Shown one piece after another: positions 37,990 to 62,954 of a stretch of DNA of 64,000 nucleotides. The stretch spans positions 2,475,001 through 2,539,000 of the forward strand of contig NC_014551.1 of the NCBI RefSeq assembly GCF_000196735.1, given 5' to 3'. The notes under the pieces were generated by a model. It saw nothing but the letters and a program-made list of their open reading frames with translations. It was not told where the DNA came from and made no database searches. Position numbers and translations under genes: made by a program. Each line of letters starts with the position of its first letter. Position 1 is the first letter of the stretch. The stretch is from Bacillus amyloliquefaciens DSM 7 = ATCC 23350. Its GTDB lineage: Bacteria; Bacillota; Bacilli; Bacillales; Bacillaceae.

Positions 37990-38004
37990 AACGCGTACCG
38001 CCCC

Positions 38005-39970: not shown

Positions 39971-40104
39971 TTTTCGTTATATTCTTTTCACCCTTACTTT
40001 TTTTAACAATATACCGGCTCAATCAGCAAAAATCAAGAGGCTGTAAGAAATAAAACCTGCCTTTGATTAATTTCCCTGTACAGACACAAACAGCCTGACT
40101 GCCA

Positions 40105-40112
40105 CATACAGT
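40105..40112 (+). promoter_or_regulatory. SigE-type -10 element of sigK
   Basis: CATACAGT matches the SigE -10 consensus CATACANT, about 40 bp upstream of the sigK start. B. subtilis sigK is first transcribed by SigE. No clear -35 was assigned. Confidence 0.5.
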
Positions 40113-40153
40113 TACATATAGGCTTTTGCCTACATAACTTTGTGGAGGTGAGG

Positions 40154-44393: not shown

Positions 44394-45125
44394 CTAGCCA
44401 ACGAACATCGCCCCGTTGACATCAAGTATTGCGCCACAAATGTAAGAGGCATGCTCGCTACACAAAAAACAGATCGTTTCAGCCTGCTCTTGCACAGTAG
44501 ACGGGCGTCCAATCGGGATCCGCTCTAGGATCGATGCTCGCTTCTCCTCATTGTATTCCGCCCACATTGACTCCACTCGTTCAGTGAGCGTCAGTCCAGG
44601 GGCTACGGCGTTCACGGTGATCCCATAGGGGGCCAACTCAAACGCGCATTGTCGCGTAAAACCAATAACAGCTGCTTTGGCAGCGGTGAAGTCTGCTCCA
44701 CCGAAGAAGGTGTAGGTTCTTCCAGCAACAGCCGTGATGTTGACCACTCGCCCCCAATCACGCTTTTTCATATCAGGAATTGCGGCACGCGTACAATTAA
44801 ACACGCTTCGTAAATTCAATTCAAACGTTGTGTTCCAGTCGCTATCCTCTATCGTCTCGATTAATTTCGAATGTTGACTTCCACCCACTGCGTTCACCAG
44901 AATATCTATCCGCCCAAGTTCTTTGTTTACAGACTGGAATGCCTGATGAACTTGGTCACTGTTAGTGACATCAACCTCGCAACGCATCGAACCATCTTGC
45001 GAGCCAAGGCTGTCGATATTCTTGTCTAGTAACGCAACTTGACATCCACTTGTCACTAACTGTGCCGCAACGGCACGTCCGATCCCATGTGCTGCACCAG
45101 TAACAATTGCTACGCGCCCTTTCAT
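44394..45125 (-). CDS. Short-chain dehydrogenase/reductase of the biosynthetic cluster
   Basis: 243-aa classical SDR with cofactor motif TGAAHGIGRA, NAVGG and a C-terminal PYGITVNAVAPG. The catalytic Tyr of YxxxK is not seen in the usual place: the segment reads FFGGADFTAAKAAVIG, with Phe before the TAAK lysine. That substitution questions ordinary alcohol oxidation. It resembles EntA/DhbA-type dehydrogenases and 3-oxoacyl reductases. It is the last gene of the cluster; GGAGGGGG precedes the ATG. Likely an NAD(P)-dependent tailoring or dihydroaromatic step; substrate unknown. Confidence 0.75.
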   Translation of the reverse strand: MKGRVAIVTGAAHGIGRAVAAQLVTSGCQVALLDKNIDSLGSQDGSMRCEVDVTNSDQVHQAFQSVNKELGRIDILVNAVGGSQHSKLIETIEDSDWNTTFELNLRSVFNCTRAAIPDMKKRDWGRVVNITAVAGRTYTFFGGADFTAAKAAVIGFTRQCAFELAPYGITVNAVAPGLTLTERVESMWAEYNEEKRASILERIPIGRPSTVQEQAETICFLCSEHASYICGAILDVNGAMFVG

Positions 45126-45338
45126 TTGACCCCCTCCTTATTGGTAAAAAACTTTCAGATCTCAATTCTTTACGTTATTTGGGATATTCTATAGTTGGGA
45201 AAACTGGCTCGACCTAAAATTTGTTACAAAACCTCAGGCGATCTCAGTCTTTTATATTCTCCCGCTCCAAGCATGCAACGAGGTATGCCATTTGTAGAAT
45301 GTCGAACAAGTATACTTCAAAGAGCAATAAGCAATACC

Positions 45339-46614
45339 CTAATTTGAATTGAGACTATTTAAGCCTTTGATCATATGTTCAATTACCTGCTCGACTTGCC
45401 CGTCGTACGCTTCCACGTCCATATCGATCCGTCCTGAAATATATTCAGAGTGCTCATCGAGAGTGATTTCGAAGCCTGCCCTACACGTACCGTTTGGTAG
45501 CAGACGGAGATACATCCATTCCGTTTTACCCAGAGAGATTTCGGTTCCATCACGTTGAGAGTTCCATGCGTTGAACAACTGGGGGAAAGGAAGGTCATAA
45601 TCCACGTTCCGAGGTGAGGTACCTTCGGGATAGAGTGCAGTCGTCTCGATATTCTGGCGTTCAGCTGCTCTAATCACCGCGCGTTGCACTTGATTAAGCA
45701 CCGCGACTAGCGGTTCCCCCAGCTCATGGTGGGTTGTGATCGGAACTGTGTTCGATAGGGGACCGACCACGGTGTGATCATCAGGATGCCGACGGTTTGC
45801 GAATGGGACTCCTAACAACGGTTTTGACTCCACTCACCGCACTTACCGCACGCTGGAAAGCTGCGAATAATAGTACGAATGGTGTAACACGGTAGGCTCT
45901 CGCGCAGGTTAAAACCATGCTACGTGGTATAGGAGAGTCGAACCGTACACTTTGTGTATGTCCTACAGTACCGCGCGGAGTGGCGCGAACTGCATCAATG
46001 CCGTATGGCCCTGGCACAGGGTAAACATTAACCCGAGTCCGTGAGTCTAATACTTGCTTTACTGTTTGAGTGACCTCCATCTGGGCATACTCCTCCCAGC
46101 TCCGTGACGATTTCAAGGACTTGCCAAGGTAGCGATTAGCAATTTCCTCGATTAGTAGGTCGATTGATGCCCCATCGCAAGTATAGGTCCAAAATCCAAT
46201 CCACACGTGTAACCCATTATCATCCGAAACTGACGCTAGCCTAAGTCCTGGCTCACTAGATTGTCTTGCACGATGCGCAAGAAACGCCTCATTAGTAATA
46301 CCAGTGTGCTTGGTGCGCATTTGCTCCCTGAGCACTTCACGCAGACTAGACTCTGTGGGGGCATAGCCGACAAGGATGTCACCTTCAATCTGGAAGTGGG
46401 CGGCTAGGATTGGATGCCGGGCCAACGTATCAGCTACAGCGTTGAGAGCTTTATCTGATTCGCAACTCGGTGAGAAGTCGAGGCGTAATGCTCCAGCATA
46501 GGCGCGGCCCGTTTTGTCAAGCATTGCTCCGACCCATTTTTCACGTAGCCCCGCCGTGCTAGGGACTGTTATGAGCTGGCGTCCTACAGGTGGGACTAGG
46601 TATTTCTGCTGCAT
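45339..46614 (-). pseudogene. Stand-alone condensation-domain gene split by a frameshift
   Basis: Reads as one NRPS condensation protein of about 425 aa if one base is skipped near 45820. The N-terminal half ends VSGVK-TVV... in the first frame. The second frame continues KPLLGVPFANRRHP and VGPLSNTVPI, the classic late C-domain motif. The shift lies at an AAAA run (GTC AAA A CCG). The HHxxxDG motif reads FWTYTCDGAS, so both His are lost even without the frameshift. It may be a non-catalytic partner, a dead gene, or hold a sequencing error. Start at 46614 after GAGGAGG. Confidence 0.75.
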
Positions 46615-46639
46615 CTGAATATCCTCCTCTCTCATTAAA

Positions 46640-46935
46640 TATTTTCTTCGTTTTTCTCGCTTTTTCGTAGCCTTTCAGATCAACGCTATCAATCAAATCA
46701 AGTCAGACTATTCATCCACCAAAAAATAGCTTTCTTATTGCTGAAACTATCTGTATCGGGCGTTTTGCTACTACAGACTCGGCTGTTACAGATGTCCTCG
46801 CATTTCCTCAACTTTTCCATTAGAAGTTGGATCCTTTGCCTTTGACTCACAGATATAAGCCCAAAGGTCATCTTTGACGATGCATCTACTTTACGCCTCG
46901 ATCAAAAGGCTGTACCTAGGGAAACCCCCTCTGCC
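46640..46935. other. Intergenic gap inside the cluster
   Basis: About 300 bases between the transporter stop and the condensation gene. One minus-strand frame is open for some 30 codons (KDDLWAYICESKAKD, ending RGHL-stop near 46797) but lacks a start and matches no family I know; it is not a clear MbtH protein. No strong terminator was seen. Confidence 0.4.
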
Positions 46936-48384
46936 CTATGATTCCCTTCCATCGGTTAAGCTCTCCTGGTTGTCTGGAGATGATGCTAGAGCACTCCCTC
47001 TAACCAAAATAAGAACTGCCCCGCAGATTATTGCCACAGCGGCTAGCACGAATGAAACAATGAATCCTTTTGGATTGATTATTGTAGATGCGCCAGTACC
47101 GTCCGTAATACTAATAGCAACGGCCGCAAGAAGGGTCACTCCCCCTACGTTAAACAGTTGCTGGATCGTTGACGTAATGCCTGAACCGGCTCCTGCATCC
47201 ACCTCAGAGAGCCCGAAAGTTGCGAGATATTGAGAGACTGGTGAAACACAGCCAAAGCCGACAGACGTCACAATCATTGCTGGCATCATCCCAACCCAGT
47301 AGCTTTGTGTAGTTACTCCAACTGCAAACAGTAAGAAACCTAAGGCTGAGACTGTGAGACCAACAAGAGCAGCCGCCCTTGAACTCCACCGTTTTATAAT
47401 AAACTGAAAAAGGAATAAGCCTGGGAAAAAGCCGAGGCAAAATGGCAGCCAAGCCATACCTGCTTGCATTGGGGTCATGCCAAGGGAATCTTGCAATAGT
47501 AGGACACCAAGGTAAAACAAAGCACCAGATGTACCGGCTAAGATTGCAACAATGGCATAACCAATGATCCGCGGCGAACGAGCCATTAGCCGGGCGGGTA
47601 TAATGCCGTCACCAGACCGTTTGCAACGTTGAAGCACCCCGATGATGCCGAGCATACCCAAGAGAGACAATGTGACGCGGAGCCATAATAGCTGCTCAAT
47701 GCCTGAACCAATGATGCCCAAAACTATCACAGAAACCGAAAATGCCAATACCAAAGCATTACCAATGTCCAACCGCGCGGTTGCCTGGTTGGATAACTTC
47801 GGGACCAACAGCACAACAGTCACATAGAGGATCAAGATGATTGGGATGTTGATCCCAAAGACCCAGCGCCACGACAGATATTCAGTTAGTACACCAGATA
47901 GCATAACCCCGACGATTGACCCGAATCCACCGAGAGCCGCCCAGATCGAAAATGCTTTGCCACGTTCAGGGCCTGAAGGGAACAATAAGGATACCATCGC
48001 TAAACCAGTTGCAGCAGTGAGAGCCTCACCCACCCCCTGACCAGCGCGTCCTACAATAAGCATGCTCGCGTTAGAGGATAAAGTTGCCACGAGTGAAAAT
48101 ACACCGAAAACTGCGATACCTATTTGGAAGGTACGTCGCAACCCAAAGGCATCACCGATTCGACCACCTAGCAGTAGCAGCGATCCGGCAGCTACGAGGT
48201 AAGCATTCACCACCCACGTTAAGGACGCAGCAGTGAATCCTAAATCCTGCTTTATATGCGGTAATGCCACATTAACCACAGTGGCGTCAAGCAATAGTAT
48301 GAACTGGATGATCGAAATAACAGCAAGGGCCTTCCATCGCACCTCACTTATCACTTCAATTTCGTTTTTTGATGTCTGTATCAT
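46936..48384 (-). CDS. MFS exporter, DHA2 (14-helix) type
   Basis: About 482 aa with 14 hydrophobic segments. It has DHA2/EmrB-like motifs: LDATVVNVALPHIKQDLG in helix 1, GGRIGDAFGLRR after helix 2 and GRAGQGVGEALTAATG in helix 4-5. The ATG at 48384 follows TTGGAGTTAAAAG. It is probably the exporter of the cluster's product and a source of self-protection. Proton-driven efflux is a family trait; the substrate is inferred from position. Confidence 0.85.
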   Translation of the reverse strand: MIQTSKNEIEVISEVRWKALAVISIIQFILLLDATVVNVALPHIKQDLGFTAASLTWVVNAYLVAAGSLLLLGGRIGDAFGLRRTFQIGIAVFGVFSLVATLSSNASMLIVGRAGQGVGEALTAATGLAMVSLLFPSGPERGKAFSIWAALGGFGSIVGVMLSGVLTEYLSWRWVFGINIPIILILYVTVVLLVPKLSNQATARLDIGNALVLAFSVSVIVLGIIGSGIEQLLWLRVTLSLLGMLGIIGVLQRCKRSGDGIIPARLMARSPRIIGYAIVAILAGTSGALFYLGVLLLQDSLGMTPMQAGMAWLPFCLGFFPGLFLFQFIIKRWSSRAAALVGLTVSALGFLLFAVGVTTQSYWVGMMPAMIVTSVGFGCVSPVSQYLATFGLSEVDAGAGSGITSTIQQLFNVGGVTLLAAVAISITDGTGASTIINPKGFIVSFVLAAVAIICGAVLILVRGSALASSPDNQESLTDGRES

Positions 48385-48567
48385 TTCTTTTAACTCCAAT
48401 CTTTTTGGTAATTGCATCATTATATAATCTGAGGTGGATCCCATTGTTTAGACCTGATCCACCGCTATACTCAGTTAGAATAAGCCAACCCTAGGACTAT
48501 ACCTATGTTATTTCCAACAAGAAAGAACTAGAAAAGAATTATTGTCGGTATAATCTGGCCGAAGTAA

Positions 48568-49161
48568 TCAGCTCGACATTAAGCTAGGGTAGTTAGCCAA
48601 CGCCAGCGAGTTCCGTATCATTGTGATCCCGTGCTCCGTTCCGATACTCTCGGGGTGAAACTGCACACCTTCGATTGGTCTCGTACGATGACGCACCCCC
48701 ATTACCACGCCATCTTCTTGAGAAAATGCGGATGTAACCAGTTCGTTTTCCGTACCGGGATCGGTGATAGCCAGTGAATGGTACCGGACTACAGTGACGG
48801 GCGATGGGACATGGCAAAAGATACCTTGTCCGTCGTGTTGCACCTGAGCTTTCTTGCCGTGCTCGATAGTAGGTGCATTTTTGAGCTTACAGCCAAAAAA
48901 CTCCCCAATAGCTTGGTGGCCCAAACAGACGCCGAATATAGCTTGATGTTCACCTGCTGCACGAATTATTTCTGGGTATCCATGTTCCTGCGGTGTTCCT
49001 GGACCTGGCCCCAGGACTAGAAGTTGAGGCTTCCACCGCTGGTACTGACTTATTGGGTCATCATTCACACGTACCACCTTCGTGTGTGCGCCAACCTTTG
49101 CGTAATACTGTGCAATGACGAATACAAAGCTATCAAAGGCATCTACCAATAAAACTCTCAT
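48568..49161 (-). CDS. Anthranilate synthase component II-like glutamine amidotransferase
   Basis: 197-aa TrpG/PabA-type class I amidotransferase. The nucleophile motif is GVCLGHQAIGEFFG, with the closing HPES triad part (VQFHPES) and oxyanion segment LGPGPGTP. It supplies ammonia from glutamine to the partner chorismate enzyme. The ATG overlaps the component I stop (ATGA) and its ribosome site AGGAGGG lies in that gene's end, so the two subunits are made together. A dedicated copy inside the cluster points to secondary metabolism. Confidence 0.88.
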   Translation of the reverse strand: MRVLLVDAFDSFVFVIAQYYAKVGAHTKVVRVNDDPISQYQRWKPQLLVLGPGPGTPQEHGYPEIIRAAGEHQAIFGVCLGHQAIGEFFGCKLKNAPTIEHGKKAQVQHDGQGIFCHVPSPVTVVRYHSLAITDPGTENELVTSAFSQEDGVVMGVRHRTRPIEGVQFHPESIGTEHGITMIRNSLALANYPSLMSS

Positions 49162-50558
49162 ACGCTCCCTCCTATCGCTCTGGCAAACGACCGTATTTTC
49201 GCTCCCGCCTCGTCCCATTCAGCCGATGCCTTCGAGTCAGCCACAATACCCGCAGCAGCTCGCAATACGTAGCGACCAGAGTCACCGACGATTGTTCTGA
49301 TGGTCAGGGCAAGCACACCACTGTTCTCTCCATTGATATACCCAGCGCAACCAGTGAACAACCCTCGTGCAGTATCTTCGAGCTCGGCGATAATCTCCAT
49401 CGCACGGACTTTGGGTGCACCTGTCATTGTGCCCGCCGGAAAATTTGCTTCAATCAAGTCCCATATGTCGGAATCTGCACGGACCGGAGTCTCAACAGTC
49501 GAGACCAAGTGAAAAAGTGGACCGTATGCATCCATCTGCATAAACGAGGTTACATCCACACCTCCTGGGATAGCGCAACGTGCTAAATCATTGCGCGCCA
49601 GATCCACAAGCATCAGATGCTCGGCCGCCTCTTTGGGAATGTGGTCCAAGCGACTGCCCCGCTGATCTTCCTGCGCCATTGTTCCCGCGATGGGGCGAAC
49701 TTGAGCACCACCATCACCACTACGGATCATGAGCTCTGGGCTGGAGGACACCACATGCCGGTCGCCAAGGTCCAAGTAATACATATACGGAGCCGGATTA
49801 ATTGATGCGAGTCTTTCATAGAGGTCTAATGGGGGAATCCTCGCACTCGATATTGCGCACCGACACAACTGAACCTGATAGATGTCACCAGCACGAATAT
49901 GTTCTTTGGCACGGTTCACCGCATCGCAGAAGGTGCTCCGCTCCGTTAAACCCTGAATAACTCCTAAATCCCATGGACCACGTGGAGCCAGATCTATTTC
50001 GGGATCGGTAAGAGTTGCGATTAAAATTTCGGTATCTGTGACCTCATCGTGTCTACACTTCAATACATCGACTTGGGCACCTCCTTCAGCACCGTTGTAG
50101 CGCACGACGTGTCTGTAGACGCGCAATACCACCTCCGGTTCTCCCTTTTCAATAGCTATCCGCGGTAGATGTTCAACAAAACGAGCTGCACTATACCCCA
50201 GAACCAACACGAGCGGGAAACCCTCCGGCAACGCAAGGATCTGTGTCACCTTTCTCATGCGCTCCCATAAGGGCTTAGTGTGATCATTAACTACCTCGCT
50301 ACATTCGCTGGTTTTCATCTCAAAAGGACCACTGCCGAATACTTGCCAAGTGCCATCTACTAGTATGAGCTCAAACAGCAAATCAACCATGAACATTGTT
50401 TGTTTACCATCGACAGCTTGAAAACCAGTCCCCGTCTCAAATAAGGCCGATCGAGGGTATAAACTTAATACACGCCGCCGCACTTGTGCTACCGGCGCGG
50501 CTTCAGGAACCACACTTTGCTCGACGACCCATGAATCTTTCTGTTCTTGCGTATTCAT
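49158..50558 (-). CDS. Anthranilate synthase component I-like chorismate enzyme
   Basis: 466-aa TrpE/PabB/PhzE family enzyme. The decisive motif reads RPIAGT (Ala), as in anthranilate or aminodeoxyisochorismate synthases, not PIKGT with the Lys nucleophile of PabB. Other core motifs are DLARND, LFHLVSTVE and GTMTGAPKVRAMEIIAELE. The LLES tryptophan-feedback motif of TrpE is replaced by ALFETGTG, consistent with release from feedback control. The ATG at 50558 overlaps the PaaK-like stop, with GGAGG 8 nt before. The product is most likely anthranilate; ADIC cannot be excluded. Confidence 0.87.
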   Translation of the reverse strand: MNTQEQKDSWVVEQSVVPEAAPVAQVRRRVLSLYPRSALFETGTGFQAVDGKQTMFMVDLLFELILVDGTWQVFGSGPFEMKTSECSEVVNDHTKPLWERMRKVTQILALPEGFPLVLVLGYSAARFVEHLPRIAIEKGEPEVVLRVYRHVVRYNGAEGGAQVDVLKCRHDEVTDTEILIATLTDPEIDLAPRGPWDLGVIQGLTERSTFCDAVNRAKEHIRAGDIYQVQLCRCAISSARIPPLDLYERLASINPAPYMYYLDLGDRHVVSSSPELMIRSGDGGAQVRPIAGTMAQEDQRGSRLDHIPKEAAEHLMLVDLARNDLARCAIPGGVDVTSFMQMDAYGPLFHLVSTVETPVRADSDIWDLIEANFPAGTMTGAPKVRAMEIIAELEDTARGLFTGCAGYINGENSGVLALTIRTIVGDSGRYVLRAAAGIVADSKASAEWDEAGAKIRSFARAIGGSV

Positions 50559-51877
50559 AGTGTAGGCCTCCAATCTCGGATTCGGGCGTGTTTCCAGGAA
50601 ATATAAGCTCCAGTCTCCGTCCGCGGATCCAAACAATCTTGCAACACCAACCTTACCGGGACACCAAAATGATCCGCTATCTCCTTTTGAATCTGATCAA
50701 AAGACTGATTCCCGACCTCAGCAACCATCGCTACTTCTAATTCGTCAGTGCCATTGTTCGAAATCCTGATATCGACCTGATATCCCCAAACCCTATCGGC
50801 TGCCCTTAAAACAGCCGATTCGATTGAAGCAGGAAACATCTGGCAGCCACCGATTGTCATAACGTCGTCGACCCGACCAAATATCCGTATACAGCGGGAC
50901 GGATTTCCACACCCACAAACACTTGACGGGTATAGGCTTGCTAAATCCCCTGTACGAAATCGGATTAACGGCTTAGCACCAGGGACGAGCATGGTAAGGC
51001 ACAACTCACCTACATCACCATCAAGCCCATTTATCGGTATAGTCTCAACAATATAGTTCGTTTCAGAAAGATGTAGATTTCCTTCTGAACAACCTGTAGC
51101 TACTGCATGTGTCTCTTGCGACCCATACAGACCATGAGTACAATTTGCACCCCAAATCCGAGATATGTTTGAAAGCATCTCAGGAGTGCATAACTCTCCT
51201 AACACAAGGATCTGACTCACCGGAGTCTTGCAGGGATCGATTCCAAGGCTCTTATAGAACCGAGCAAGGGCAAGGGCAACAGCAGGTGAGCATATTAATG
51301 ACTTTACACCAAGACCCGTAATGAGATCAGCAGCTTTTTCAAGACCGACTCGAGGGCTCTCCGGCCATAACCGCACGAATGGAATACCTAGATTCCGACA
51401 TACTTCACCATACGTATCCCCGAAGGCATATAACTCTGATGGCCCCATGATTGCAGTGAGAGCATGCATCGTACCGAATGTTGATTGGTATACTTCCTTA
51501 ACAGCATTCTGAACGTATGCCCCGCTAGTCTCGACGTCAATTGAAGCTCGTGGGCACGGCGTTGATTTCCCCGTAGTCCCAGTCGTCTCATAATACGCAG
51601 CGATTTCATCCATCGGGACACAACAGACCTCCGTACCAGCAGAACGAAGGTCACTCTTGGTAGTGAAAGGTATTCCATCCAGAACCTTGAACTCACTTGT
51701 GAAACCCACTTGGGTACGCAGATGTTCACGGTAGAATGGTGATTGCACCTCAACGTACTCTAATATTTCTTGCCCGCGCAACTCAACCTTCTCGTGTAAC
51801 CCTTGTAGTTTAGTTTGTCCATTCAGATATGCCTCTACATATTCCGGCCATTCTAGATACAATTGTTTTTTGTTCAT
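50555..51877 (-). CDS. PaaK-like adenylate-forming enzyme
   Basis: 440 aa, phenylacetate-CoA ligase family. AMP-binding motifs are YYETTGTTGKSTPCPR, GLYGSQETHA, RFRTGDLASL and GRVDDVMTIGG. A CxCxxxxxC-like cluster (VCGCGNPSRC) sits before the last motif, as in many PaaK proteins. Such enzymes activate aryl acids as adenylates for CoA or carrier-protein loading. Here the partner is probably a carrier in the cluster and the substrate an anthranilate-type acid (inference). Its start overlaps the NRPS stop (ATGA). Confidence 0.85.
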   Translation of the reverse strand: MNKKQLYLEWPEYVEAYLNGQTKLQGLHEKVELRGQEILEYVEVQSPFYREHLRTQVGFTSEFKVLDGIPFTTKSDLRSAGTEVCCVPMDEIAAYYETTGTTGKSTPCPRASIDVETSGAYVQNAVKEVYQSTFGTMHALTAIMGPSELYAFGDTYGEVCRNLGIPFVRLWPESPRVGLEKAADLITGLGVKSLICSPAVALALARFYKSLGIDPCKTPVSQILVLGELCTPEMLSNISRIWGANCTHGLYGSQETHAVATGCSEGNLHLSETNYIVETIPINGLDGDVGELCLTMLVPGAKPLIRFRTGDLASLYPSSVCGCGNPSRCIRIFGRVDDVMTIGGCQMFPASIESAVLRAADRVWGYQVDIRISNNGTDELEVAMVAEVGNQSFDQIQKEIADHFGVPVRLVLQDCLDPRTETGAYISWKHARIRDWRPTL

Positions 51878-54800: not shown

Positions 54801-57402
54801 TGATTCTTTGGCGACCAGCATCATCAATTGTCATCCTAAGCATTGGATGGCGGTCTACCAACAAGCCGACCGCGCGCACAAACCGATCATGATCTAAATT
54901 CTCCACTTCCCACTCAAAGTATCCTTGACACCCGACACCGCCGTAGTTGAAGTCAGAGCCGCGACCAATCCATAAAGCCTGTTGGCTTTCATTTAGCTCG
55001 AAGGGCTCTAATTGTTGATCAGTTGGCAGGTGCTCAAATGCTGGCAAATCGACATTGAGAGAAGCATTAGCCAAGCATATAAGGTTTGATAATACCGGGT
55101 TCTCAAGAAAAGGACTCATCTCAATGTGGATACCATACTTGCAAGATAATTCACCCATCATGCGCATAGCCCGCAAAGAGTCTCCACCAGAGTGAAAGAA
55201 ATTAGACTCAAGAGTTGCCTCATCACATCGAGTCCACTTCAACCAGCAGTCGTGCAAAGCTATCTCGGTTTTCGTAGTCGGGAAAAAGACTGTGTGCGTT
55301 GTATCTCGCTCGAACTGATAGTCGCGTAACGCGGTATAGTCTACCTTACCGTTGCGTCCTAGCGGCAACACTATCGTATTGATTTGGCTCGGTTGAGCAG
55401 CGGGAGGCAATTGTTCCCTAAGATACTTACGTACCGCACCCTTAACATTCTTAGCATTGGAAGACTGCTCAAGGAAAAGTACCAGTATTTCCCCAGCATC
55501 ATCGGTGAAGCAAACGGCAGCGGCTTTTGTCACACCTAGAACTTTAAGCGCAGTAATCTCTACTTCAGCTAAGTCAACCCGATGCCCACGAATTTTCACA
55601 AGTGCGTCAGATCTGCCAAAAATCTCGACGGTTCCATCCAAACCTATCCGTGCTCGGTCACCGGAAATGTATTGCAGCGGTGAAGTTTCGTCGAATGTGT
55701 TCGGACGGAAAGATCTTTTAGTCTCATTGCAATCTATGTAACCCGTCGAAAGCGTTTCACCAGTGATGATTAGTTCCCCGACGCAGCAAGCTGGTAACTC
55801 CTGGCCGGCACTATCAACCACGTACATGTTTGCACCAGGCACCGCCCGTCCTACTGTGGGCAACAATGTGCGACGAGGACCAGATAAATCCTCTACTGAG
55901 ACAACAGCCGCTTCCGCAGAGCCATAGACGTTGAAAACTCGGTAATTCAGATCAGCAGGCGGCCACTGCTTGCACCGCTCACCAGCAATTAACATAGTGT
56001 CCAAACCAGTTTGCCATCCATCAGCCCAAAGCGTTTCAGCGATTGATGTCATAACCAATGTGTGCGTAACATTGTTCTTGATGAACCAGTTTGTCAGCAT
56101 TCGTACATCTTGCAAGACATCAGATGAGGGGATGCAGACCGTTCCGCCTGAACATAGCACCGGTAGCGGATCTACTTCGATCATCCCGTATCCTGGGGAC
56201 GACAGCCATGAACCTCGAGTGTTTCCCCCTAGCTTGGCAGCGTCGATGATAGCGTCAATTGTAGAGGCCATCCCACGGTAGGATAGACAGGCTGCCTTGG
56301 GTCGCCCGGTAGTTCCGGAGGTTCCAGCGATGAAGCACACTTCATTTTTAGTTTCGACCCACTCGCCACCTCCCCACTTGACTAGCGGATTCAGAATTAG
56401 CCTATTGTCTAAGTCCAGCACGGGGTATGCACCTAGACAACGTGCCCTGTCTGTCAAGGTGCCTGCAGTAATTACGGCGTCAGGTTTGGATTCGTCTAGT
56501 AAAGCTCGTATCCGATCATCGGGATGCGTGGAGTCAATCAGCACGCAGGTACCGCCCATACGTTGGACAGCGATGATAGAGACTAAGTATCTCCAACCTC
56601 GTTCCATGAAGAGCGCGAGTCTGAAATGTGACTGATTTGTGGTTACTTGTTCGCTCACCTGCTGAACTATTGCCTCAGATGCATCCCAAAGTTCGGCATA
56701 GGTCAAGGTTTGGCCACTCGTGTTATCCACGATCGCTAGGTCCATTGGCTTCGTCTGCTTGTGTATGAAGATGCGTTCGACCAGCGACTTACGCTGACGC
56801 TGTTCATGTGTAGTGTGGGTAGGTAAGGCATCAAGCGCGGGAATTGCCTTTGGATCCAAGGCCCTGGCACACGCAAAGGCCGTGATTTTGCATAGATGCA
56901 TAAACATGGCCTTCTCAATTCGGTCTTCCCGCACTGACAGAACACACCGACCATCTTGAACTAATAACCATACCAGTGACTCCGCAATTGGGTAGCTCTG
57001 CCCATCAGTCACCTCAATGTCCATAGGAACTGACACATTATGTCTTGGTAGTTCTGCGGTCTGGCGCAGATCAAAGATGTAAGTGCGAGCGTCATCAGCA
57101 TCGAGCAGTTTGGTCGCATCGACCTCAAGGCAAGTTGCTGATCCATTGGCGTGTATCCCAACGGTTACCCGACCTTCGGGACTGACCAGCGAGCCCAGTA
57201 TCGAGGCGACCACAATAAGATCGTCAATCGATGCAGTAAGCCCATCAGGTAAAAAAATCTCCTCTTCCAATCGCTCAGCCATTGTTGACTGGCCGGATGC
57301 ATAGCGTTCGAATGCGTCCCATATCGACCGATTAATACTTGGAATCTCCTTCATCAATCCACTTTCCAATTGCTGTGTGTTCAGTTTGGAATTTTCCGAC
57401 AT
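51874..57402 (-). CDS. Non-ribosomal peptide synthetase, A-T-Cy-A-T
   Basis: 1842 aa. Residues 1-200 are unassigned. A1 (about 205-700) has AGTSGTTGRPK, YGSAEAA, SGDRAR and NGKVDY. T1 has GGDSLRA (Ser near 742). A heterocyclization domain (about 800-1230) shows DMLIADAWS, the DxxxxDxxS form that replaces HHxxxDG, plus LPAAPKLP and GDFT. A2 (about 1260-1750) has FTSGSTGEPKG, GGPTETTNW and YRTGDLG. T2 has LGGDSLTAM and ends the protein. In A1 the usual Asp235 position reads Gly, as in aryl/anthranilate-activating domains; A2 keeps Asp (FDMSVFDVF). No release domain is present. ATG at 57402 with AGGGAG. Confidence 0.93.
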   Translation of the reverse strand: MSENSKLNTQQLESGLMKEIPSINRSIWDAFERYASGQSTMAERLEEEIFLPDGLTASIDDLIVVASILGSLVSPEGRVTVGIHANGSATCLEVDATKLLDADDARTYIFDLRQTAELPRHNVSVPMDIEVTDGQSYPIAESLVWLLVQDGRCVLSVREDRIEKAMFMHLCKITAFACARALDPKAIPALDALPTHTTHEQRQRKSLVERIFIHKQTKPMDLAIVDNTSGQTLTYAELWDASEAIVQQVSEQVTTNQSHFRLALFMERGWRYLVSIIAVQRMGGTCVLIDSTHPDDRIRALLDESKPDAVITAGTLTDRARCLGAYPVLDLDNRLILNPLVKWGGGEWVETKNEVCFIAGTSGTTGRPKAACLSYRGMASTIDAIIDAAKLGGNTRGSWLSSPGYGMIEVDPLPVLCSGGTVCIPSSDVLQDVRMLTNWFIKNNVTHTLVMTSIAETLWADGWQTGLDTMLIAGERCKQWPPADLNYRVFNVYGSAEAAVVSVEDLSGPRRTLLPTVGRAVPGANMYVVDSAGQELPACCVGELIITGETLSTGYIDCNETKRSFRPNTFDETSPLQYISGDRARIGLDGTVEIFGRSDALVKIRGHRVDLAEVEITALKVLGVTKAAAVCFTDDAGEILVLFLEQSSNAKNVKGAVRKYLREQLPPAAQPSQINTIVLPLGRNGKVDYTALRDYQFERDTTHTVFFPTTKTEIALHDCWLKWTRCDEATLESNFFHSGGDSLRAMRMMGELSCKYGIHIEMSPFLENPVLSNLICLANASLNVDLPAFEHLPTDQQLEPFELNESQQALWIGRGSDFNYGGVGCQGYFEWEVENLDHDRFVRAVGLLVDRHPMLRMTIDDAGRQRINTVDGRQAVEYIDLRELSPVEISNEINQLRRRMANDEIGTTQWPLFRFVVSRISTHLSRIHLCIDMLIADAWSIFQVIIPDLIDFYINEKSQLPQLQTTFHDYVAYRNKLRQSAQYLAHREYWLEKIKELPAAPKLPQLEPGETTAPVRFERHEGKLEQESWARLKAQAQERRISPSGVVALVLCEVLRCWSEEDWFTLNFPVSDRMPVSDDIDLVVGDFTNTLLVPYETEVEDTFEARGRRLQDAIWEALDHRLFTGVEVLRELARIRRSGREPLMPVVLTSLLGHPGRHDVSLLGREVFGVSQTPQVTLDVQVRESEGTLYFKWDYLTGVIRPDVIEAMFGAFSNLLQQLTDDSEVWKRTWLDLRPASQIAVRNEVNATEEPVPEVHLRDLLLERLRDSANEPAVIDIHGEYTWDEIGRAATHVKMMIQRVCNSSDRFVGIMLPKGVAQYEAVYGCLLAGIGYVPIDIDLPQERVRTILAQAGVRIVIASPDTMVPVGVHKIEHVTAGPGSWMQQNTDFVIEPVSEDYSPYVIFTSGSTGEPKGVEIPEAAVVNHIFDVVERFGLDKSIRHLATAALHFDMSVFDVFGPLVHGGSVVVPEPAAGPTPEAWLRLHRQCRVTFWACVPAVMDLVCSVAETALTVHPIESVTNIVMAGDWIPLSLLPRARSVFPSARMYSCGGPTETTNWSVIHEINEDEGSICRSVIYGSPMRNSKYHIVSENWIDRPDWVPGEMLVESDISLARGYLGKPELTQCVFVYHPRTGRQMYRTGDLGRYLPNGEIEILGRVDNQIKIKGIRIELGEIERAAEACDGVSRACAVALPGQDGRPKQIGLAYIGESNLDDAIIKELTHRLPNYMVPKTIKKVPNLPLSKNGKVDVRALRERLLKTDTKELNTGDRRTILREVIRVISVQLAQPVILPEDNFIQLGGDSLTAMNLKIELESKLSITVSLESIMLTETIGEFANELAERMKL

Positions 57403-57478
57403 CCGAATGATCACTCCCTAATATAAATTGCAGCGTGTTTCGTTTAAAATTTTCCAACATCCGAATGATTACTCCCCA
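57367..57478. repeat. 54-bp imperfect tandem repeat over the NRPS translation start
   Basis: 57367-57420 and 57425-57478 match at roughly 80%. Each copy carries a ribosome site (GGGAG), ATCATTCGG, an ATG and the next 14 codons. The downstream copy is the true NRPS start. The upstream copy holds the stop codon of the preceding gene and a second ATG at 57460 in another frame. Confidence 0.88.
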
Positions 57479-58605
57479 GTTGTAGGCTCTTCCCCATTCG
57501 TTTCGTGGTCATAAATGGCTCCGATTTGGTTTGCCCAGGTCAAGACCGATTCTTGAAGATCTTTTCGTTCCTTACCTACAAAAGATGAGAGATCGAGCGA
57601 GATTAAGCGCTTGGAGCCACTTCTCATGATGCGCCAGGTAGTCACCGCCCGGCTACCGATTAACACGACAGGACGCCCATTTCCTGCAGCGTCGTACCCA
57701 CCAATCTGGTTAAGCCCTAGGCAGTCGCGCTGTCTCGAGCCGGGCGCGTACCCCATCAAAAGCGGATCCCAAGCAGGCAAAAACCGTACGCCTGTAGCTG
57801 AGTGCTGACCTGCGTGCAATACGAACTCTTCAAACTTATCCTTTTGATTGGCACTCAGCCAAATTCCTGATCCAATCTCGTATGCTCCGGCCCTTTCCAA
57901 GAGCAAGCGCGCTGTCTTCTTTGAAATGGCCATCCACCAAGCAAGGTCATCGACTGATACCGGCCCATAATTTTGAATATAACGGCGAGCGATGTCCAAC
58001 TGTAGGCGTTCACGGTCAATTGGTGTATCATCGCTTTGAAGCAGACCGTTAGGCGCGGCGGTATACAACCACCGATTGGACCAAGGATTCGACGAGGGAA
58101 TCCGAATTAATGCTCCATCATATGTCGCTACAGTGGTGCACGCGCGGGTCTGGGGGCCACTCAATCCCAAGGCATCCCCAATATCTTTTAGCCGGACAGG
58201 AGAGCCTGTAGTGAGCTCGGTAAGGCTTGGTAGTATTCGCCGATAGTCGGCCAATGTGAGCTTGACATCGCGTAACCGCCACTCGTGGTCGGCAAGAGAT
58301 AGACGGGTAACACCAAAAACCGTAGCCGCCAGAGACTGGGGAAGTAAGAATTTTGAACGTCGCATTCCTGGTATTCGCACCAAAGCTGGATCAGTTTCCA
58401 TGGAGAGAACTTCGGTTCGATCAATACTTCGATTGCGGGCTAGGACGGCTAGCCAGCTAGTAGGCCGAGTTGAATAAACTCCGATATATGCCTCCGCGAT
58501 TTCAGCCAGAGTTGAGTCTTCGAAACGCTCAAAATGTTCTGACACAATCCATTCGGCTAGGAGCTCGTTAGGCAGCTCATCCCAGTACGTTTTGCCGCTC
58601 ACCAT
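57469..58605 (-). CDS. Winged-helix protein of the AlkZ/YcaQ DNA-glycosylase superfamily
   Basis: 378 aa matching the HTH_42 winged-helix family: SWLAVLARNR, YGPVSVDDLAWW and the signature RFLPAWDPLLMGYAPGSR. AlkZ and YcaQ excise bases alkylated or cross-linked by natural toxins, and AlkZ protects the azinomycin producer. The catalytic QxQ-type motif of AlkZ is not obvious at the expected place, so this could be a binding-only or differently acting member. Position between the SHMT-like gene and the NRPS suggests self-resistance. ATG at 58605 after AAGGTGAG. Confidence 0.72.
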   Translation of the reverse strand: MVSGKTYWDELPNELLAEWIVSEHFERFEDSTLAEIAEAYIGVYSTRPTSWLAVLARNRSIDRTEVLSMETDPALVRIPGMRRSKFLLPQSLAATVFGVTRLSLADHEWRLRDVKLTLADYRRILPSLTELTTGSPVRLKDIGDALGLSGPQTRACTTVATYDGALIRIPSSNPWSNRWLYTAAPNGLLQSDDTPIDRERLQLDIARRYIQNYGPVSVDDLAWWMAISKKTARLLLERAGAYEIGSGIWLSANQKDKFEEFVLHAGQHSATGVRFLPAWDPLLMGYAPGSRQRDCLGLNQIGGYDAAGNGRPVVLIGSRAVTTWRIMRSGSKRLISLDLSSFVGKERKDLQESVLTWANQIGAIYDHETNGEEPTTGE

Positions 58606-58658
58606 TTTCTCACCTTGGTGTTGAGACAGAACCTGGCAGTTATTTTTGATACTTCCAT
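58599..58658 (-). CDS. Possible 19-aa leader peptide coupled to the glycosylase-like gene
   Basis: ATG at 58658 lies 7 nt after a perfect AGGAGG, the strongest ribosome site in this gap. It encodes MEVSKITARF... and its TGA overlaps the next start (ATGGTGA). It could bring ribosomes to the glycosylase-like start. It may be chance; no attenuation signature (repeated codons) is seen. Confidence 0.35.
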   Translation of the reverse strand: MEVSKITARFCLNTKVRKW

Positions 58659-58760
58659 GCATTAACCTCCTAACAATAGTTTTCACTGACTTTAACGCAA
58701 TCCTCGTTTTGAGTGGAATCAATCTGTAGGACTGCAACCTAGACAGTCCCGATTGGGAAA

Positions 58761-58800
58761 AGGGCGCTTAACATACCGCCCTATCAGCCCAAAACGGGCT
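58761..58800 (-). terminator. Tandem hairpins between the SHMT-like and glycosylase-like genes
   Basis: On the minus strand AGCCCGTTTTGGGCT is followed by AGGGCG...CGCCCTTTTCCC. The second stem has a short T run, so it may be a weak terminator or an mRNA stabiliser inside the operon. Confidence 0.45.
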
Positions 58801-58936
58801 AGTTCGCACCTACTTCCTTCAAAATCGGTCGAGCACCACGATTTGGGATCAGAACGATGAGCATGCATAAAAACTTGTTTATATTCAGTTCGTTTAATTA
58901 GCAGCTTACGTTCAAATTTCCTTACTCCTGAACGCA

Positions 58937-60289
58937 TCACTCCGTATAATCTATAAGCGGATAAATTGAGCACAACGCTTCAATCTCTGAACGAAACTGC
59001 TCCCTCAAAGTTGGATCCAATTCGTACTCCTTATCGCCAAGCGGTGTCACTTTGTCTAAGATCCGGCAAACTAAATCAACAATTTGACGGCACCCCTGTT
59101 CGTCGACGCGACGTTGCGCCAGGGAACCGGTACCAATGCGCAATCCACTAGTGACGAATGACGACCGGGTCTCTCTTGGAACACGATTTTTATTCACTAT
59201 AATCGAGCACTGTTCTAGCGCCGACTCAGCGATGGCACCAGTAATGGCACCATGCAAACGAATCAGAATTGTGTGGTTCTCAGTACGTCCTCCTATAACA
59301 TCATAGCCTTTTTCCTGAAACGCACTTGCTATGGCATTAGCTGTGGTCCGAATTCGCTCTATGTATGCGTCAAACTCCTGTGACATTGCATAGCCGAACG
59401 CAGCAGCCTTCGCAGCTATTATGTTGACGGCTGGCGCTCCCTGCATCCAGGGAAATACTGACTGTTGCAAAGCACGGCTGAAGGTTGTCTCCCTGCCAGG
59501 AACCTTTTCTTTAGCATCACGTCCGGACATAATCAGACCACCACGTGGTCCTGCGAGTTGCTTATGCGTACACGTTGTAGTTACGTGTGCAGCGTTAATC
59601 GGGCTTGGGTGTCGTTTAGTCGCAACAAGTCCGGCGATATGCGAAATGTCAGCGAGCAAGATCGCCCCTATCTCATCGGCAATCTCACGGAACCTCTCGA
59701 AATCCACGACCCGCGAATAGGCAGTCGCACCACAGATGATCATGCGCGGGCGATGATCGTGGGCCAGTCTACGCACCTCGTCATAATCAATGACGCCTTC
59801 AGGAGTCGTGCCGTATCCAATCGCCCGGTAATACGTGCCTGAAAATGTGACTGGGCTGCCGTGAGTGAGGTGCCCACCGTGATCGAGATTCATTCCGAGC
59901 AGAGTATCCCCGGGCTGAAGTAGTGCCGAAAGCACTTGGTAGTTCGCACTCGACGCTGAATGTGGCTGGACGCCTGCGTACTGGGCACCGAACAGTTCAC
60001 GAGCTCTTTGGATTGCCAGAGACTCGACCAAATCAACGTTCTCACATCCTGCGTGGTACCGTCTACCAGGAGTTCCCTCTGCCGTAACGTTGACCAAGGC
60101 AGAAGCTGACGCTGCCAAGGCTCGGGGCGTGACTGCACAGCAGGAGGCGACCAGTGACAGTGTTCGATGCTGACGCCTTACTTCGGCATCCAAGATGCTC
60201 TCCAGTTCGGGGTCTTGTATCCCTAGGTCTGTCAAGCCTCGCTGTAGCAGGTGAGCTTGGCTCCCAAGCAGTTTATTTTTAATCGTCAT
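58937..60289 (-). CDS. SHMT-like PLP enzyme of the biosynthetic cluster
   Basis: 450 aa, fold type I PLP enzyme. The PLP lysine is in THKQLAGPRGG (Lys243), with HGGHLTHGSP, NKNRVP and TSGLRIGT as in serine hydroxymethyltransferase. Active-site changes stand out: the KYAEG tyrosine is Thr (NVTAEG, Glu kept), RYYGG reads RYHAG, and HSGSQAN reads HSASSAN. This is unlike a housekeeping glyA. Relatives in NRPS clusters make alpha-methylserine or act as threonine transaldolases; either would supply a beta-hydroxy amino acid. ATG at 60289 lies one base after the upstream stop, with GGAGGG. Confidence 0.85.
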   Translation of the reverse strand: MTIKNKLLGSQAHLLQRGLTDLGIQDPELESILDAEVRRQHRTLSLVASCCAVTPRALAASASALVNVTAEGTPGRRYHAGCENVDLVESLAIQRARELFGAQYAGVQPHSASSANYQVLSALLQPGDTLLGMNLDHGGHLTHGSPVTFSGTYYRAIGYGTTPEGVIDYDEVRRLAHDHRPRMIICGATAYSRVVDFERFREIADEIGAILLADISHIAGLVATKRHPSPINAAHVTTTCTHKQLAGPRGGLIMSGRDAKEKVPGRETTFSRALQQSVFPWMQGAPAVNIIAAKAAAFGYAMSQEFDAYIERIRTTANAIASAFQEKGYDVIGGRTENHTILIRLHGAITGAIAESALEQCSIIVNKNRVPRETRSSFVTSGLRIGTGSLAQRRVDEQGCRQIVDLVCRILDKVTPLGDKEYELDPTLREQFRSEIEALCSIYPLIDYTE

Positions 60290-60290
60290 C

Positions 60291-61283
60291 TCATTTCCCT
60301 CCATTCCTGTTATCCGCTGCGAACGACAGAACGATATCAGCGACCTCTTGCGCATGGGTACGTATGAAATAGTGTCCCCCACCAGATAAAATTGCTGACT
60401 TAGTGACATCGATAAAACTTCGCCATTTATTCACTACGTCATTGGGCTGAGGTGTAGCCGGGTCTTCGTCACCTAACAACACCAGTGCTGGCATTCCACG
60501 TGCTTGAAGGTGTGTCAGCGTTCGATATGCCTCGGTTGCTATCAGGTGGTCCCTCCTGCCTCTGGCTAACATCCCATCGACCTCCTCGTCGGTTAGCCCG
60601 GTGAACGCCCCCAAAGACCGTAGATATTGGCCCCATTCATAATCTGAGGTCGTCTCGGCTTCACGCAATGCAGCGTCTGGGTTATCTATTGGCTGCGATG
60701 CCGCGACCACTAAGGTGAGGGAACTGACTGTGGGTGCTATAGCCGAGGCGATACAGGCCGCTGTTGCTGCTCCAGCGCAATGCCCATAAATAATGAGTTG
60801 GTCTGCATCGATTTTTTCAATCTCGGTTATGAGTTTGTTAATCAATTCAGAAAAGTCCGACGTTTCTTTTACTTCTAAATCACCGAAGTCTACCCCGAAG
60901 ACACGCACGTCCTGATTTCCGCGAAATATATCTCGGTATGCGGTCGGATCGCCACCACCGAACGGGACGGCAACCACTGCAATCGACCCATCGGCTGTAG
61001 ACTCGTCGTGTAGCGGGACGAGTCGCACATCACGCCTAATAGAATTATGTAGGATGTACCTAGCTAGTTCCTCTGCGGTTGGGTGCTCAAAGATGGCAAC
61101 AATCTGCAAATTGCCACCCAGACGCGACATCACGCGGACAGCATCGAAAGAATCGCCACCAAGCTTGAAAAAGTTATCACCTGGGCTTACGTATTCGATA
61201 CCAAGAACTTCACTGAACGTCGCAGTGATTCGCTCTACTTCCCCCGCAAAAGTTTTCTCATCTAATTCAACTCTGTCTGTCAT
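60291..61283 (-). CDS. Carrier protein-thioesterase fusion with Cys nucleophile
   Basis: 330 aa. N-terminal carrier domain FKLGGDSFDAVR (Ser45) is fused to an alpha/beta-hydrolase thioesterase from about residue 85. The nucleophile elbow reads GHCAG (Cys169) instead of GHSxG; Asp274 (GDEDPATP) and His304 (GGGHYF) complete a triad. It is probably the final carrier plus release unit. A Cys nucleophile makes a more activated thioester and is known in TEs that form strained rings, such as the obafluorin beta-lactone TE. It lacks an adenylation domain of its own. Confidence 0.87.
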   Translation of the reverse strand: MTDRVELDEKTFAGEVERITATFSEVLGIEYVSPGDNFFKLGGDSFDAVRVMSRLGGNLQIVAIFEHPTAEELARYILHNSIRRDVRLVPLHDESTADGSIAVVAVPFGGGDPTAYRDIFRGNQDVRVFGVDFGDLEVKETSDFSELINKLITEIEKIDADQLIIYGHCAGAATAACIASAIAPTVSSLTLVVAASQPIDNPDAALREAETTSDYEWGQYLRSLGAFTGLTDEEVDGMLARGRRDHLIATEAYRTLTHLQARGMPALVLLGDEDPATPQPNDVVNKWRSFIDVTKSAILSGGGHYFIRTHAQEVADIVLSFAADNRNGGK

Positions 61284-61335
61284 CTCATTCTCCTTTGTAA
61301 TAAAATTTGTAATAAATAATCATTGAACCAAAATG

Positions 61336-62406
61336 TTATTTATTCTTTTCCTTCTTATCCGAGAGGATATCAGCAAGCTCATTGAGTAAGTCGTTAGCAG
61401 CAATCTTGCTGCAAAATTGGCCCTCGAACTCGAGTCGGAACTCCGAGGCACTTATTCTCCTAATATCCATACCCACAGGGAATGTCGCGCTTATCACTTG
61501 CGACGCAGGGATTCCCCGCGGGGCTGCACCATTGATAAACAGTTCGGACGCTCGGCAGCACTCTAGTGCCTCACGGGCGTCTGAGTTGTGCCGTGCACGG
61601 GCCTCCAGGCTTGTCCGAAACTGAGTCGGGGCATTTTGGATCTGCTCGATAGGCATTGCAATGAGGCCGGTCATCATACCGATAGCCCCTGACTCGTGAG
61701 GTAAACGCCAACACCGGGACAAGCATACCGTATCGCCCTCCGACACCACGTTTGTGCCGCATAGCAACGCTAGGACTTCGGTGATAGGTAGTTTATCAGC
61801 ATTCTCAATCCGTACGACTCTGCTCAGGGATACCCGTTTTGCTTGCGCGCTCCACGCAAGCCGCCCAGATTCCGACAGTCTCACGGGCTTCATCGGTTTT
61901 CTGCGTAACTCCTTTGACGCAACATCTTCCTTTGCTATCGCGAGCTGACGTTCCACATAACTGTAGTAGGCTTGCCGCCCTTGATTAATGTCGTGCAGCG
62001 CTAAGTCTAGCATTCCTACATGCGCCAACTGAACTAAACTGCTAACAACATTGAGGGTCTGCTCATCTGCAAGAGCATGGTGGATTGACAGATAGAAGCG
62101 TTGGTTACTACCTGTCCTCACGTTGCAAACTGCGAATAGAGCAGCGCCGGACCTAACTGCTAACTGTACTAGACGGAGGGCTTCGTAGTCCGTTGCACCC
62201 CGAGCCTCAATTATCTCAATATATTGGCCAAGCTGCTCACTCCACCCGGCAATCACAAGCTCTCGCAAGAATTCCCGATTGAAGGCTATCCCCTCCTTCA
62301 GGTTTATGACGGTGGAGACCTCTGGTGCAATGCCCGTACAATACGTTTGAGCTACCACTGCTTTCGCTTCGGCACTTAGCGGTACATTGGCTAATGCATG
62401 TATCAC
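61336..62406 (-). CDS. Stand-alone condensation-domain protein
   Basis: 356 aa with HHALADEQ near residue 118, a variant HHxxxD core with Glu in place of Gly. The C-terminal half (SGAIGMMTGLIAMPIEQI, PASQVISATFPVG) also resembles a C domain. Shorter than the usual 430-450 aa, mainly at the N-terminus. It probably catalyses one amide or ester bond between carrier-bound units. First gene of the operon, with TAGGAGG before its start and a promoter candidate upstream. Confidence 0.72.
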   Translation of the reverse strand: MIHALANVPLSAEAKAVVAQTYCTGIAPEVSTVINLKEGIAFNREFLRELVIAGWSEQLGQYIEIIEARGATDYEALRLVQLAVRSGAALFAVCNVRTGSNQRFYLSIHHALADEQTLNVVSSLVQLAHVGMLDLALHDINQGRQAYYSYVERQLAIAKEDVASKELRRKPMKPVRLSESGRLAWSAQAKRVSLSRVVRIENADKLPITEVLALLCGTNVVSEGDTVCLSRCWRLPHESGAIGMMTGLIAMPIEQIQNAPTQFRTSLEARARHNSDAREALECCRASELFINGAAPRGIPASQVISATFPVGMDIRRISASEFRLEFEGQFCSKIAANDLLNELADILSDKKEKNK

Positions 62407-62954
62407 GATTCCTTGTCCTCCTAAAGTTCTTTTTGGGATAATCGCTTTAGTTTAAAGAGGCATATAGTATTAACACGGTGACTTAATATTCAAGTTTTGT
62501 ATGATGAATATTATTGACCCCCCCAATTTATTGCATTTTAGGACCAATCCATGCATATTTTATCAAAAATCGCCAATCCTCTTTCGTTATTAAAGCACCA
62601 CTTATTTACATGGTAATCAACTGTTTTTTTGAAAAGTTACCAATCTTTATAATATTTAGGGATTTAAAATATAATTATTATCATTAAATCAAAAATAATC
62701 CAATCCTCCTTGTTTTTTTCTTGTCCGAACACGTTAAAATAAGGAGTATGTTTAATGAATTATATAGACTCATTTCAATAGAATAGGGAAAACACAATCG
62801 TACAATTCAAGAATATATAAAATTGGTTGTGGCATTGGGAAAATGGGTAGTCGAAAGACTGGTAAAAACTTCGATATGGGTTTCTTACATCTAGGAACCT
62901 ACATGAATGGGTATCTTTTATAAAAACAAAAATTCCATATAGAGGTGAATTTGT
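62407..62954. other. Divergent intergenic region between cluster and regulator
   Basis: About 550 AT-rich bases with no gene seen. It should hold the promoters of both the cluster (left) and the WYL regulator (right), and likely the regulator's operator. A CCCCCC run at 62519-62524 follows the putative cluster promoter. Confidence 0.6.
62464..62493 (-). promoter_or_regulatory. Candidate SigA promoter of the biosynthetic operon
   Basis: Minus strand TTGAAT, 18-nt spacer, TACTAT (or TAATAC with 16 nt), about 60 bp before the first cluster gene. The only good match I found in this region. Confidence 0.5.

What the first reader, a model, noticed from the sequence alone, without database searches (positions are those of the whole stretch)
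44394..62406. Unrecognised NRPS cluster joining anthranilate synthase, a heterocyclization module and a DNA-glycosylase relative
Eleven minus-strand genes, mostly with coupled starts, combine a dedicated TrpE/TrpG pair, PaaK-like ligase, A-T-Cy-A-T NRPS, carrier-TE, SHMT-like enzyme, SDR, DHA2 exporter and an HTH_42 (AlkZ/YcaQ) protein. I know of no described Bacillus product with this set. Adenylating units (A1, A2, PaaK-like), carriers (T1, T2, carrier-TE) and condensation-type units (C, Cy, split C) each number three, which predicts a three-unit product with an aryl amine and an azoline ring.
Basis: partly seen in the sequence, partly recalled or inferred. Interest (0 to 1): 0.93.

Follow-up and report, generated by a model that had tools for sequence, protein, structure and literature searches.

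The report
Benzobactin-type biosynthetic gene cluster
This is another copy of a known gene cluster that makes benzobactins, small molecules built on a rare DNA-binding ring; its oddities are a probable swapped-in oxidation enzyme, a broken joining gene and a DNA-repair-like protein that lacks the usual catalytic residues.

Summary
In detail: eleven minus-strand genes at 44394-62406 with the domains described. The cluster is not unrecognised. In order, its genes match the studied benzobactin cluster xvb of Xenorhabdus vietnamensis at 57-82% protein identity, and the paper on that family (PMC10098953) names Bacillus among its hosts. Signature residues of the 2-hydroxymethylserine synthase and of the ring-closing acyl-AMP ligase are present. 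The expected product is benzoxazolinate joined to one or two 2-hydroxymethylserines; an aryl amine is unlikely and no azoline is reported for the family.

Three things differ or stay open. (1) The flavin dehydrogenase PbzC/XvbC was not found in cluster or genome. An SDR without the usual catalytic Ser and Tyr occurs here and in a collinear Staphylococcus epidermidis plasmid cluster, but was not found in four proteobacterial clusters; I infer that it replaces PbzC. (2) The free-standing condensation gene (PbzI homologue) is frameshifted, so benzobactin A may not be made. (3) The AlkZ-like protein lacks the published glycosylase motifs in all five sequences aligned.

Verdict: known system, variant member, moderate interest.

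The parts
61336..62406 (-). Condensation-like first gene (356 aa, HHALADE motif); 57% identical to the first gene of xvb
   Evidence: fold assignment weak (low-confidence model)
60291..61283 (-). Carrier plus thioesterase-like protein (PbzA-type T-TE), 65% identical to xvb
58937..60409 (-). SHMT-like enzyme (PbzB type, TAEG--RYH); homology begins near residue 41, so the true start is probably about 60289
   Evidence: 82% identical to xvb, best PDB match 7qcw at 784 bits against 397 for the next
57469..58662 (-). AlkZ-like (HTH_42, PF06224) protein without the published catalytic motifs; start chosen at the ATG after AGGAGG
51874..57414 (-). NRPS A1-T1-Cy-A2-T2 (PbzD homologue), 68% identical to xvb; A1 lacks the amino-acid-binding Asp
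50555..51877 (-). PaaK-like acyl-AMP ligase (PbzE/XsbC homologue) with C263, H269, C321, C323 and K429; 76% identical to xvb
49158..50636 (-). TrpE-like, proposed ADIC synthase (PbzF homologue), 72% identical to xvb; probable start near 50561
48568..49218 (-). TrpG-like glutamine amidotransferase (PbzG homologue), 70% identical to xvb
46936..48444 (-). MFS (DHA2-like) exporter, 72% identical to xvb
45339..46635 (-). Free-standing condensation gene (PbzI homologue) broken by a frameshift, seen as ORFs 46635-45781 and 45833-45339; pieces 62% and 69% identical to xvb
44394..45125 (-). SDR with Ala and Phe at the catalytic Ser and Tyr positions; proposed replacement for PbzC

Best explanation
The locus is a benzobactin-type biosynthetic cluster. 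The TrpE/TrpG-like pair turns chorismate into 2-amino-2-deoxyisochorismate (ADIC). ADIC is oxidised to 3-enolpyruvoylanthranilate (OPA). The PaaK-like acyl-AMP ligase closes the ring to benzoxazolinate, which A1 loads on T1. The SHMT-like enzyme makes 2-hydroxymethylserine from serine or glycine; A2 loads it on T2 and, as proposed for pbz, on the carrier of the T-TE protein. The Cy-type domain joins the two, the free-standing condensation enzyme adds a second 2-hydroxymethylserine, and the MFS protein exports the product. These steps were shown or proposed for P. chlororaphis, Xenorhabdus and C-1027; here all are inferred from homology. Specific to this locus: PbzC is missing and the SDR probably does the ADIC-to-OPA step (inferred, about 0.5). 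The PbzI homologue is frameshifted, so the product is probably benzobactin B-like unless the frameshift is a sequencing error. The AlkZ-like protein is probably not a standard glycosylase; its role is open.
For: Same gene order as xvb at 57-82% identity, also in Brenneria and two Pseudomonas genomes. PbzB-type motif in the SHMT-like protein. Zinc tetrad and Lys429 in the ligase. A1 without the Asp; A1, A2 and Cy motifs shared by all six clusters looked at. Cy-A-T best PDB match is FmoA3 6lta, 629 against 488 bits for the next. PMC9177418 (passages) and PMC10098953 (parts 1-4 of 5) tie xvb and pbz to benzobactins and name Bacillus among hosts.
Against: No PbzC/XvbC homologue in cluster or genome, so one pathway step has no proven enzyme. 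The TrpE-like protein shares PIAGT and HLVS with SgcD; I did not find residues that tell ADIC synthase from anthranilate synthase, so an anthranilate product is not excluded by sequence. The condensation gene is broken. No metabolite data.
Confidence: 0.85

Rival explanations
1. A decayed benzobactin cluster: it lost PbzC and the condensation enzyme and makes no finished product; the SDR is a bystander.
For: PbzC not found; PbzI homologue frameshifted. The SDR lacks the usual catalytic Ser and Tyr, so its activity cannot be read from the family.
Against: The other ten genes are open frames at 57-82% identity to xvb. The same SDR (58% identical, same residue changes) sits in the same place in the collinear S. 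epidermidis cluster, which also lacks PbzC but has an intact condensation gene.
Confidence: 0.3
2. A related but different product: anthranilate or alpha-methylserine units with a 4-methyloxazoline, made in the manner of JBIR-34/35.
For: Cy-A-T is closest among solved structures to FmoA3; per PMC10098953, FmoH shares the TAEG--RYH signature with PbzB; without PbzC the TrpE-like enzyme might supply anthranilate.
Against: The SHMT-like protein is 82% identical to XvbB and the ligase 76% to the xvb ligase, and the ligase keeps the zinc tetrad; pocket motifs equal those of xvb.
Confidence: 0.08
3. PbzC's step is done by an unrelated enzyme elsewhere in the genome, and the SDR tailors the product.
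For: In X. szentirmaii and P. chlororaphis unclustered phenazine genes feed the pathway, so crosstalk has precedent.
Against: SgcG and XvbC queries found nothing in the own genome. In the six clusters compared, XvbC and SDR were never found together, although one cluster was read only about 0.9 kb past its condensation gene.
Confidence: 0.25

Closest known systems
Benzobactin clusters xvb (Xenorhabdus vietnamensis) and pbz (Pseudomonas chlororaphis subsp. piscium)
   Same: Gene order, NRPS domain order, SHMT and ligase signatures, A1 pocket, atypical condensation motif
   Different: Window has no PbzC/XvbC, has an SDR, and its PbzI homologue is frameshifted. pbz itself was known to me only through the paper, not by sequence
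Collinear cluster on Staphylococcus epidermidis plasmid NZ_CP070059.1
   Same: Same order; SDR in place of PbzC; same SDR active-site changes
   Different: 28-64% identity; separate ACP; extra PPTase, DJ-1/PfpI, thioesterase and DAHP synthase genes; ligase without the zinc residues; intact condensation gene. No product known to me
Benzoxazolinate genes of C-1027 (SgcD, TrpG-like, SgcG, PaaK-like)
   Same: TrpE-, TrpG- and PaaK-like genes adjacent; ligase 41% identical
   Different: C-1027 has SgcG and an enediyne; no NRPS Cy module in the stretch fetched
FmoA3/FmoH of JBIR-34/35
   Same: Cy-A-T architecture and PbzB-type SHMT
   Different: Alpha-methylserine and oxazoline there; 2-hydroxymethylserine and ester proposed in pbz
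AlkZ/YcaQ DNA glycosylases
   Same: PF06224 above cut-off; gene inside a biosynthetic cluster
   Different: None of the three motifs given in PMC9040887 at the aligned site

Membership tests
Benzobactin cluster | Bimodular NRPS A-T-Cy-A-T with A1 lacking the amino-acid Asp | tested here: met
Benzobactin cluster | PbzB-type SHMT with TAEG--RYH | tested here: met
Benzobactin cluster | Acyl-AMP ligase with Cys-His-Cys-Cys tetrad and C-terminal Lys | tested here: met
   motif taken from PMC10098953
Benzobactin cluster | TrpE-like gene able to make ADIC | tested here: inconclusive
   72% identical to the xvb protein; no residue found that separates ADIC from anthranilate synthase
Benzobactin cluster | FMN/Fe-S dehydrogenase PbzC/XvbC/SgcG | tested here: not met
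   no match in cluster or genome, with three positive controls. I therefore call it benzobactin-type, a variant
Benzobactin cluster | T-TE protein and free-standing condensation enzyme with atypical C3 motif | tested here: inconclusive
   both homologues present and motif FWTYTCDG found, but the condensation gene is frameshifted
Benzobactin cluster | Production of benzobactins | not testable with these tools
   needs metabolite analysis
AlkZ/YcaQ DNA glycosylase | PF06224 domain | tested here: met
   101.7 bits
AlkZ/YcaQ DNA glycosylase | Catalytic motif Q-Phi-D, (Q/H)-Phi-Q or (H/Q)-Phi-(S/T)-(D/E) | tested here: not met
   Y-S-(T/S/A)-R in five of five aligned proteins where one Rhodococcus homologue has H-A-T-D; the placement rests on that one remote alignment, and hhalign with YcaQ-like proteins gave nothing significant
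Canonical SDR oxidoreductase | Rossmann SDR fold family | tested here: met
Canonical SDR oxidoreductase | Catalytic Ser and Tyr with Lys | tested here: not met
   Ala and Phe, Lys kept, in window and S. epidermidis (alignment to FabG; motifs; which FabG residues are catalytic is recalled)

The most novel reading that the evidence does not exclude
Gram-positive benzobactin-type clusters make OPA with a new kind of ADIC dehydrogenase: an SDR without the catalytic Ser and Tyr that aromatises ADIC by taking a hydride directly, in place of the flavin/Fe-S enzyme SgcG/PbzC. With it goes a conserved AlkZ-like protein without glycosylase residues that may protect by binding DNA or the intercalating product rather than by excising bases.
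Probability: 0.4. Interest if true: 0.6.

Novelty: new variant of a known kind. Interest (0 to 1): 0.42.

Why it matters
Benzoxazolinate gives C-1027 part of its grip on DNA, and the known route to it needs a flavin/Fe-S dehydrogenase. A cluster that keeps the rest of the pathway without that enzyme names a candidate replacement that one assay can test. A collinear cluster on a Staphylococcus epidermidis plasmid suggests related chemistry in a human skin commensal. An AlkZ-like protein that is conserved with the pathway but lacks the catalytic residues raises the question how producers tolerate such compounds.

Tried and rejected
A wholly new product class was rejected after the match to the published xvb cluster. 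The alpha-methylserine / 4-methyloxazoline idea, my first guess from the FmoA3 match, was set aside for 2-hydroxymethylserine because the SHMT-like protein is 82% identical to XvbB; FmoH shares the same motif according to PMC10098953, so the motif alone does not separate the two. A designed split of the condensation gene was rejected because intact homologues exist. A remnant of PbzC in the 275-bp gap between the SHMT-like and AlkZ-like genes: none found (protein hits were at chance level, E 1.1 or worse, and the one DNA hit is the SHMT tail).

More Gram-positive clusters: the ligase alignment rang only in the own genome in 397 (order), 398 (class) and 398 (phylum) genomes, samples that overlap; the Firmicutes hosts named in the paper were not reached. 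In 149 genomes of the family of the Xenorhabdus genome only that genome rang. In 298 genomes of the Pseudomonas genus 11 rang at E <= 1e-90; two of these (G046, G799) at about 1e-256, and the nine weaker ones were not examined. Trees of ligase and TrpE-like proteins are unresolved and cannot say whether the PbzC/SDR swap happened once or more.

AlphaFold models were poor (mean pLDDT 51 and 47); only the first was compared with the PDB (TM-scores near 0.2). A first attempt to align with YcaQ proteins picked wrong ORFs and hhalign with the right ones found no significant match. L014 (Pseudomonas spelaei) matched only the SHMT-like query and was left out of the six-cluster comparison. The other 76 of the 80 loci (L015-L090) match at 50% identity or less and were not examined. 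The PDB code printed in the paper for PbzB is 7QWZ; my best hit is 7qcw, and I could not confirm that they are the same protein; a text search for 7QCW found no paper. A text search on ADIC and short-chain dehydrogenase listed only general SDR papers (12 of 3,544 listed). An empty site in related genomes was not tested.
Full report
OBSERVATION. Searches confirm the families. The cluster has 49.5% G+C, against 46.0% for 1-40 kb of the window and 36.9% and 31.9% for its immediate flanks. A search with the ligase found a match in 1 of 44 genomes of the genus, the own one. Both facts fit acquired DNA; an empty site was not tested.

IDENTITY. A protein search with the ligase in the plasmid collection hit a 28.4-kb Staphylococcus epidermidis plasmid whose cluster is collinear. 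The SHMT-like query then retrieved X. vietnamensis DSM 22392 (82%), Brenneria (80%), Pseudomonas sp. BCA17 (79%) and P. spelaei (73%) loci. PMC9177418 (passages) assigns the X. vietnamensis cluster xvb to benzobactin A, which had an IC50 of 19.0 ug/ml on HepG2 cells. PMC10098953 (parts 1-4 of 5) works out the pathway in pbz and xsb and names Bacillus, Paenibacillus, Halobacillus and Clostridium as Firmicutes hosts. Figures and supplements were not available, so I do not know which Bacillus it draws or whether it drew an SDR.

GENE BY GENE. Window against xvb: first condensation-like gene 57%, T-TE 65%, SHMT-like 82%, AlkZ-like 62%, NRPS 68%, ligase 76%; TrpE-like 72%, TrpG-like 70%, MFS 72%, condensation pieces 62% and 69%. 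DNA identity to xvb is 68-73% in the six aligned blocks. Brenneria and two Pseudomonas clusters keep the order. The S. epidermidis proteins are 28-64% identical.

DIAGNOSTIC RESIDUES. The SHMT-like protein has TAEG--RYH in window, xvb and S. epidermidis, which the paper gives as the PbzB-type signature against YAEG--RYY of GlyA. Its best PDB match is 7qcw with 784 bits against 397 for the next. The ligase has C263, H269, C321, C323 and K429, matching the zinc tetrad and lysine that the paper cites; the S. epidermidis ligase lacks the zinc residues. A1 reads SPGYGM with Gly where LgrA has Asp. The A1, A2 and Cy motifs searched for occur in all six clusters. The condensation gene has FWTYTCDG, fitting the paper's remark that PbzI lacks the usual His/Asp.

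WHAT DIFFERS: THE DEHYDROGENASE. XvbC (100% self, 83% and 82% in the other two control genomes) has no match in the own genome or the S. epidermidis plasmid, nor has SgcG in the own genome. No remnant lies between the SHMT-like and AlkZ-like genes. L108, a second Pseudomonas cluster, has XvbC at 83%. The SDR gives no match in L011-L013, L091-L093 or L108; L108 was read only about 0.9 kb past its condensation gene. The best SDRs anywhere in genomes G044-G047 are 36-40% identical and lie outside the clusters (G799 was not searched for the SDR). So four clusters have XvbC and no SDR found, and two have the SDR and no XvbC. This suggests replacement; n is small, and the trees allow one single event. 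The SDR aligns with FabG but has Ala for the catalytic Ser and Phe for the Tyr, keeping the Lys (same in S. epidermidis). An enzyme that aromatises a cyclohexadiene need not protonate an oxygen, so this fits direct hydride removal; that is inference.

WHAT DIFFERS: THE BROKEN GENE. The condensation gene changes frame around 45781-45833, and both pieces are still conserved, so the change is recent or an assembly error. In P. chlororaphis, deletion of pbzI abolished benzobactin A and the dimers, while deletion of pbzA still left benzobactin B. A B-like product is therefore expected if the frameshift is real.

WHAT STAYS OPEN: THE ALKZ-LIKE PROTEIN. A PF06224 protein lies in all six clusters. In the five aligned, the site reads Y-S-(T/S/A)-R where a Rhodococcus homologue has H-A-T-D. 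The motifs given in PMC9040887 (passages) are not met. The placement rests on one remote homologue; hhalign with YcaQ-like proteins gave nothing significant and the structure model was too poor to help. It is the only PF06224 protein found in the own genome. The main text of PMC10098953 does not contain the words glycosylase, winged, resistance, short-chain or transporter.

AGAINST MY READING. The TrpE-like protein shares PIAGT and HLVS with SgcD, and I found no residue that tells an ADIC synthase from an anthranilate synthase. One pathway step has no proven enzyme. A broken gene and a missing gene together also fit a cluster in decay.

PRINT STATUS. Searches for 'benzobactin' (6 papers) and 'benzoxazolinate' (5 papers) in the held open-access library showed no title or abstract start on the Gram-positive clusters' SDR or on S. 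epidermidis. Apart from PMC10098953 and PMC9177418, those papers were seen only in the listing. Most subscription papers and all supplements are outside this check.

VERDICT. A known system, in a host group already named for it, with one probable enzyme replacement, one broken gene and one unexplained protein. Interest is moderate.

Noticed in passing
L007 4698-24666 (NZ_CP070059.1): S. epidermidis FDAARGOS_1361 plasmid carries a collinear benzobactin-type cluster with its own PPTase, DJ-1/PfpI, extra thioesterase and DAHP synthase/chorismate mutase; its ligase lacks the zinc tetrad.
   Followed up: partly
window 41500-43314 (-): OLD-family ATPase/TOPRIM nuclease next to the cluster; best PADLOC model Old, 288 bits.
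   Followed up: partly
window 43781-43800 and 62856-62875: 20-nt inverted repeat, 90% complementary, on either side of the cluster, 19,055 nt apart; may be chance or a trace of insertion.
   Followed up: no
window 57368-57418 and 57426-57476: 51-nt direct repeat, 84% identical, at the junction of the AlkZ-like and NRPS genes.
   Followed up: no
window 62955-63917 (+) and L109 2979-3626 (+): Divergent WYL regulator beside the cluster, followed by a DJ-1/PfpI protein; the S. epidermidis cluster also has a divergent DJ-1/PfpI gene.
   Followed up: no
window 25199-40879: Left of the cluster: competence protein, YqeH-like GTPase and a sigma-70 family factor, which look like core genome.
   Followed up: no
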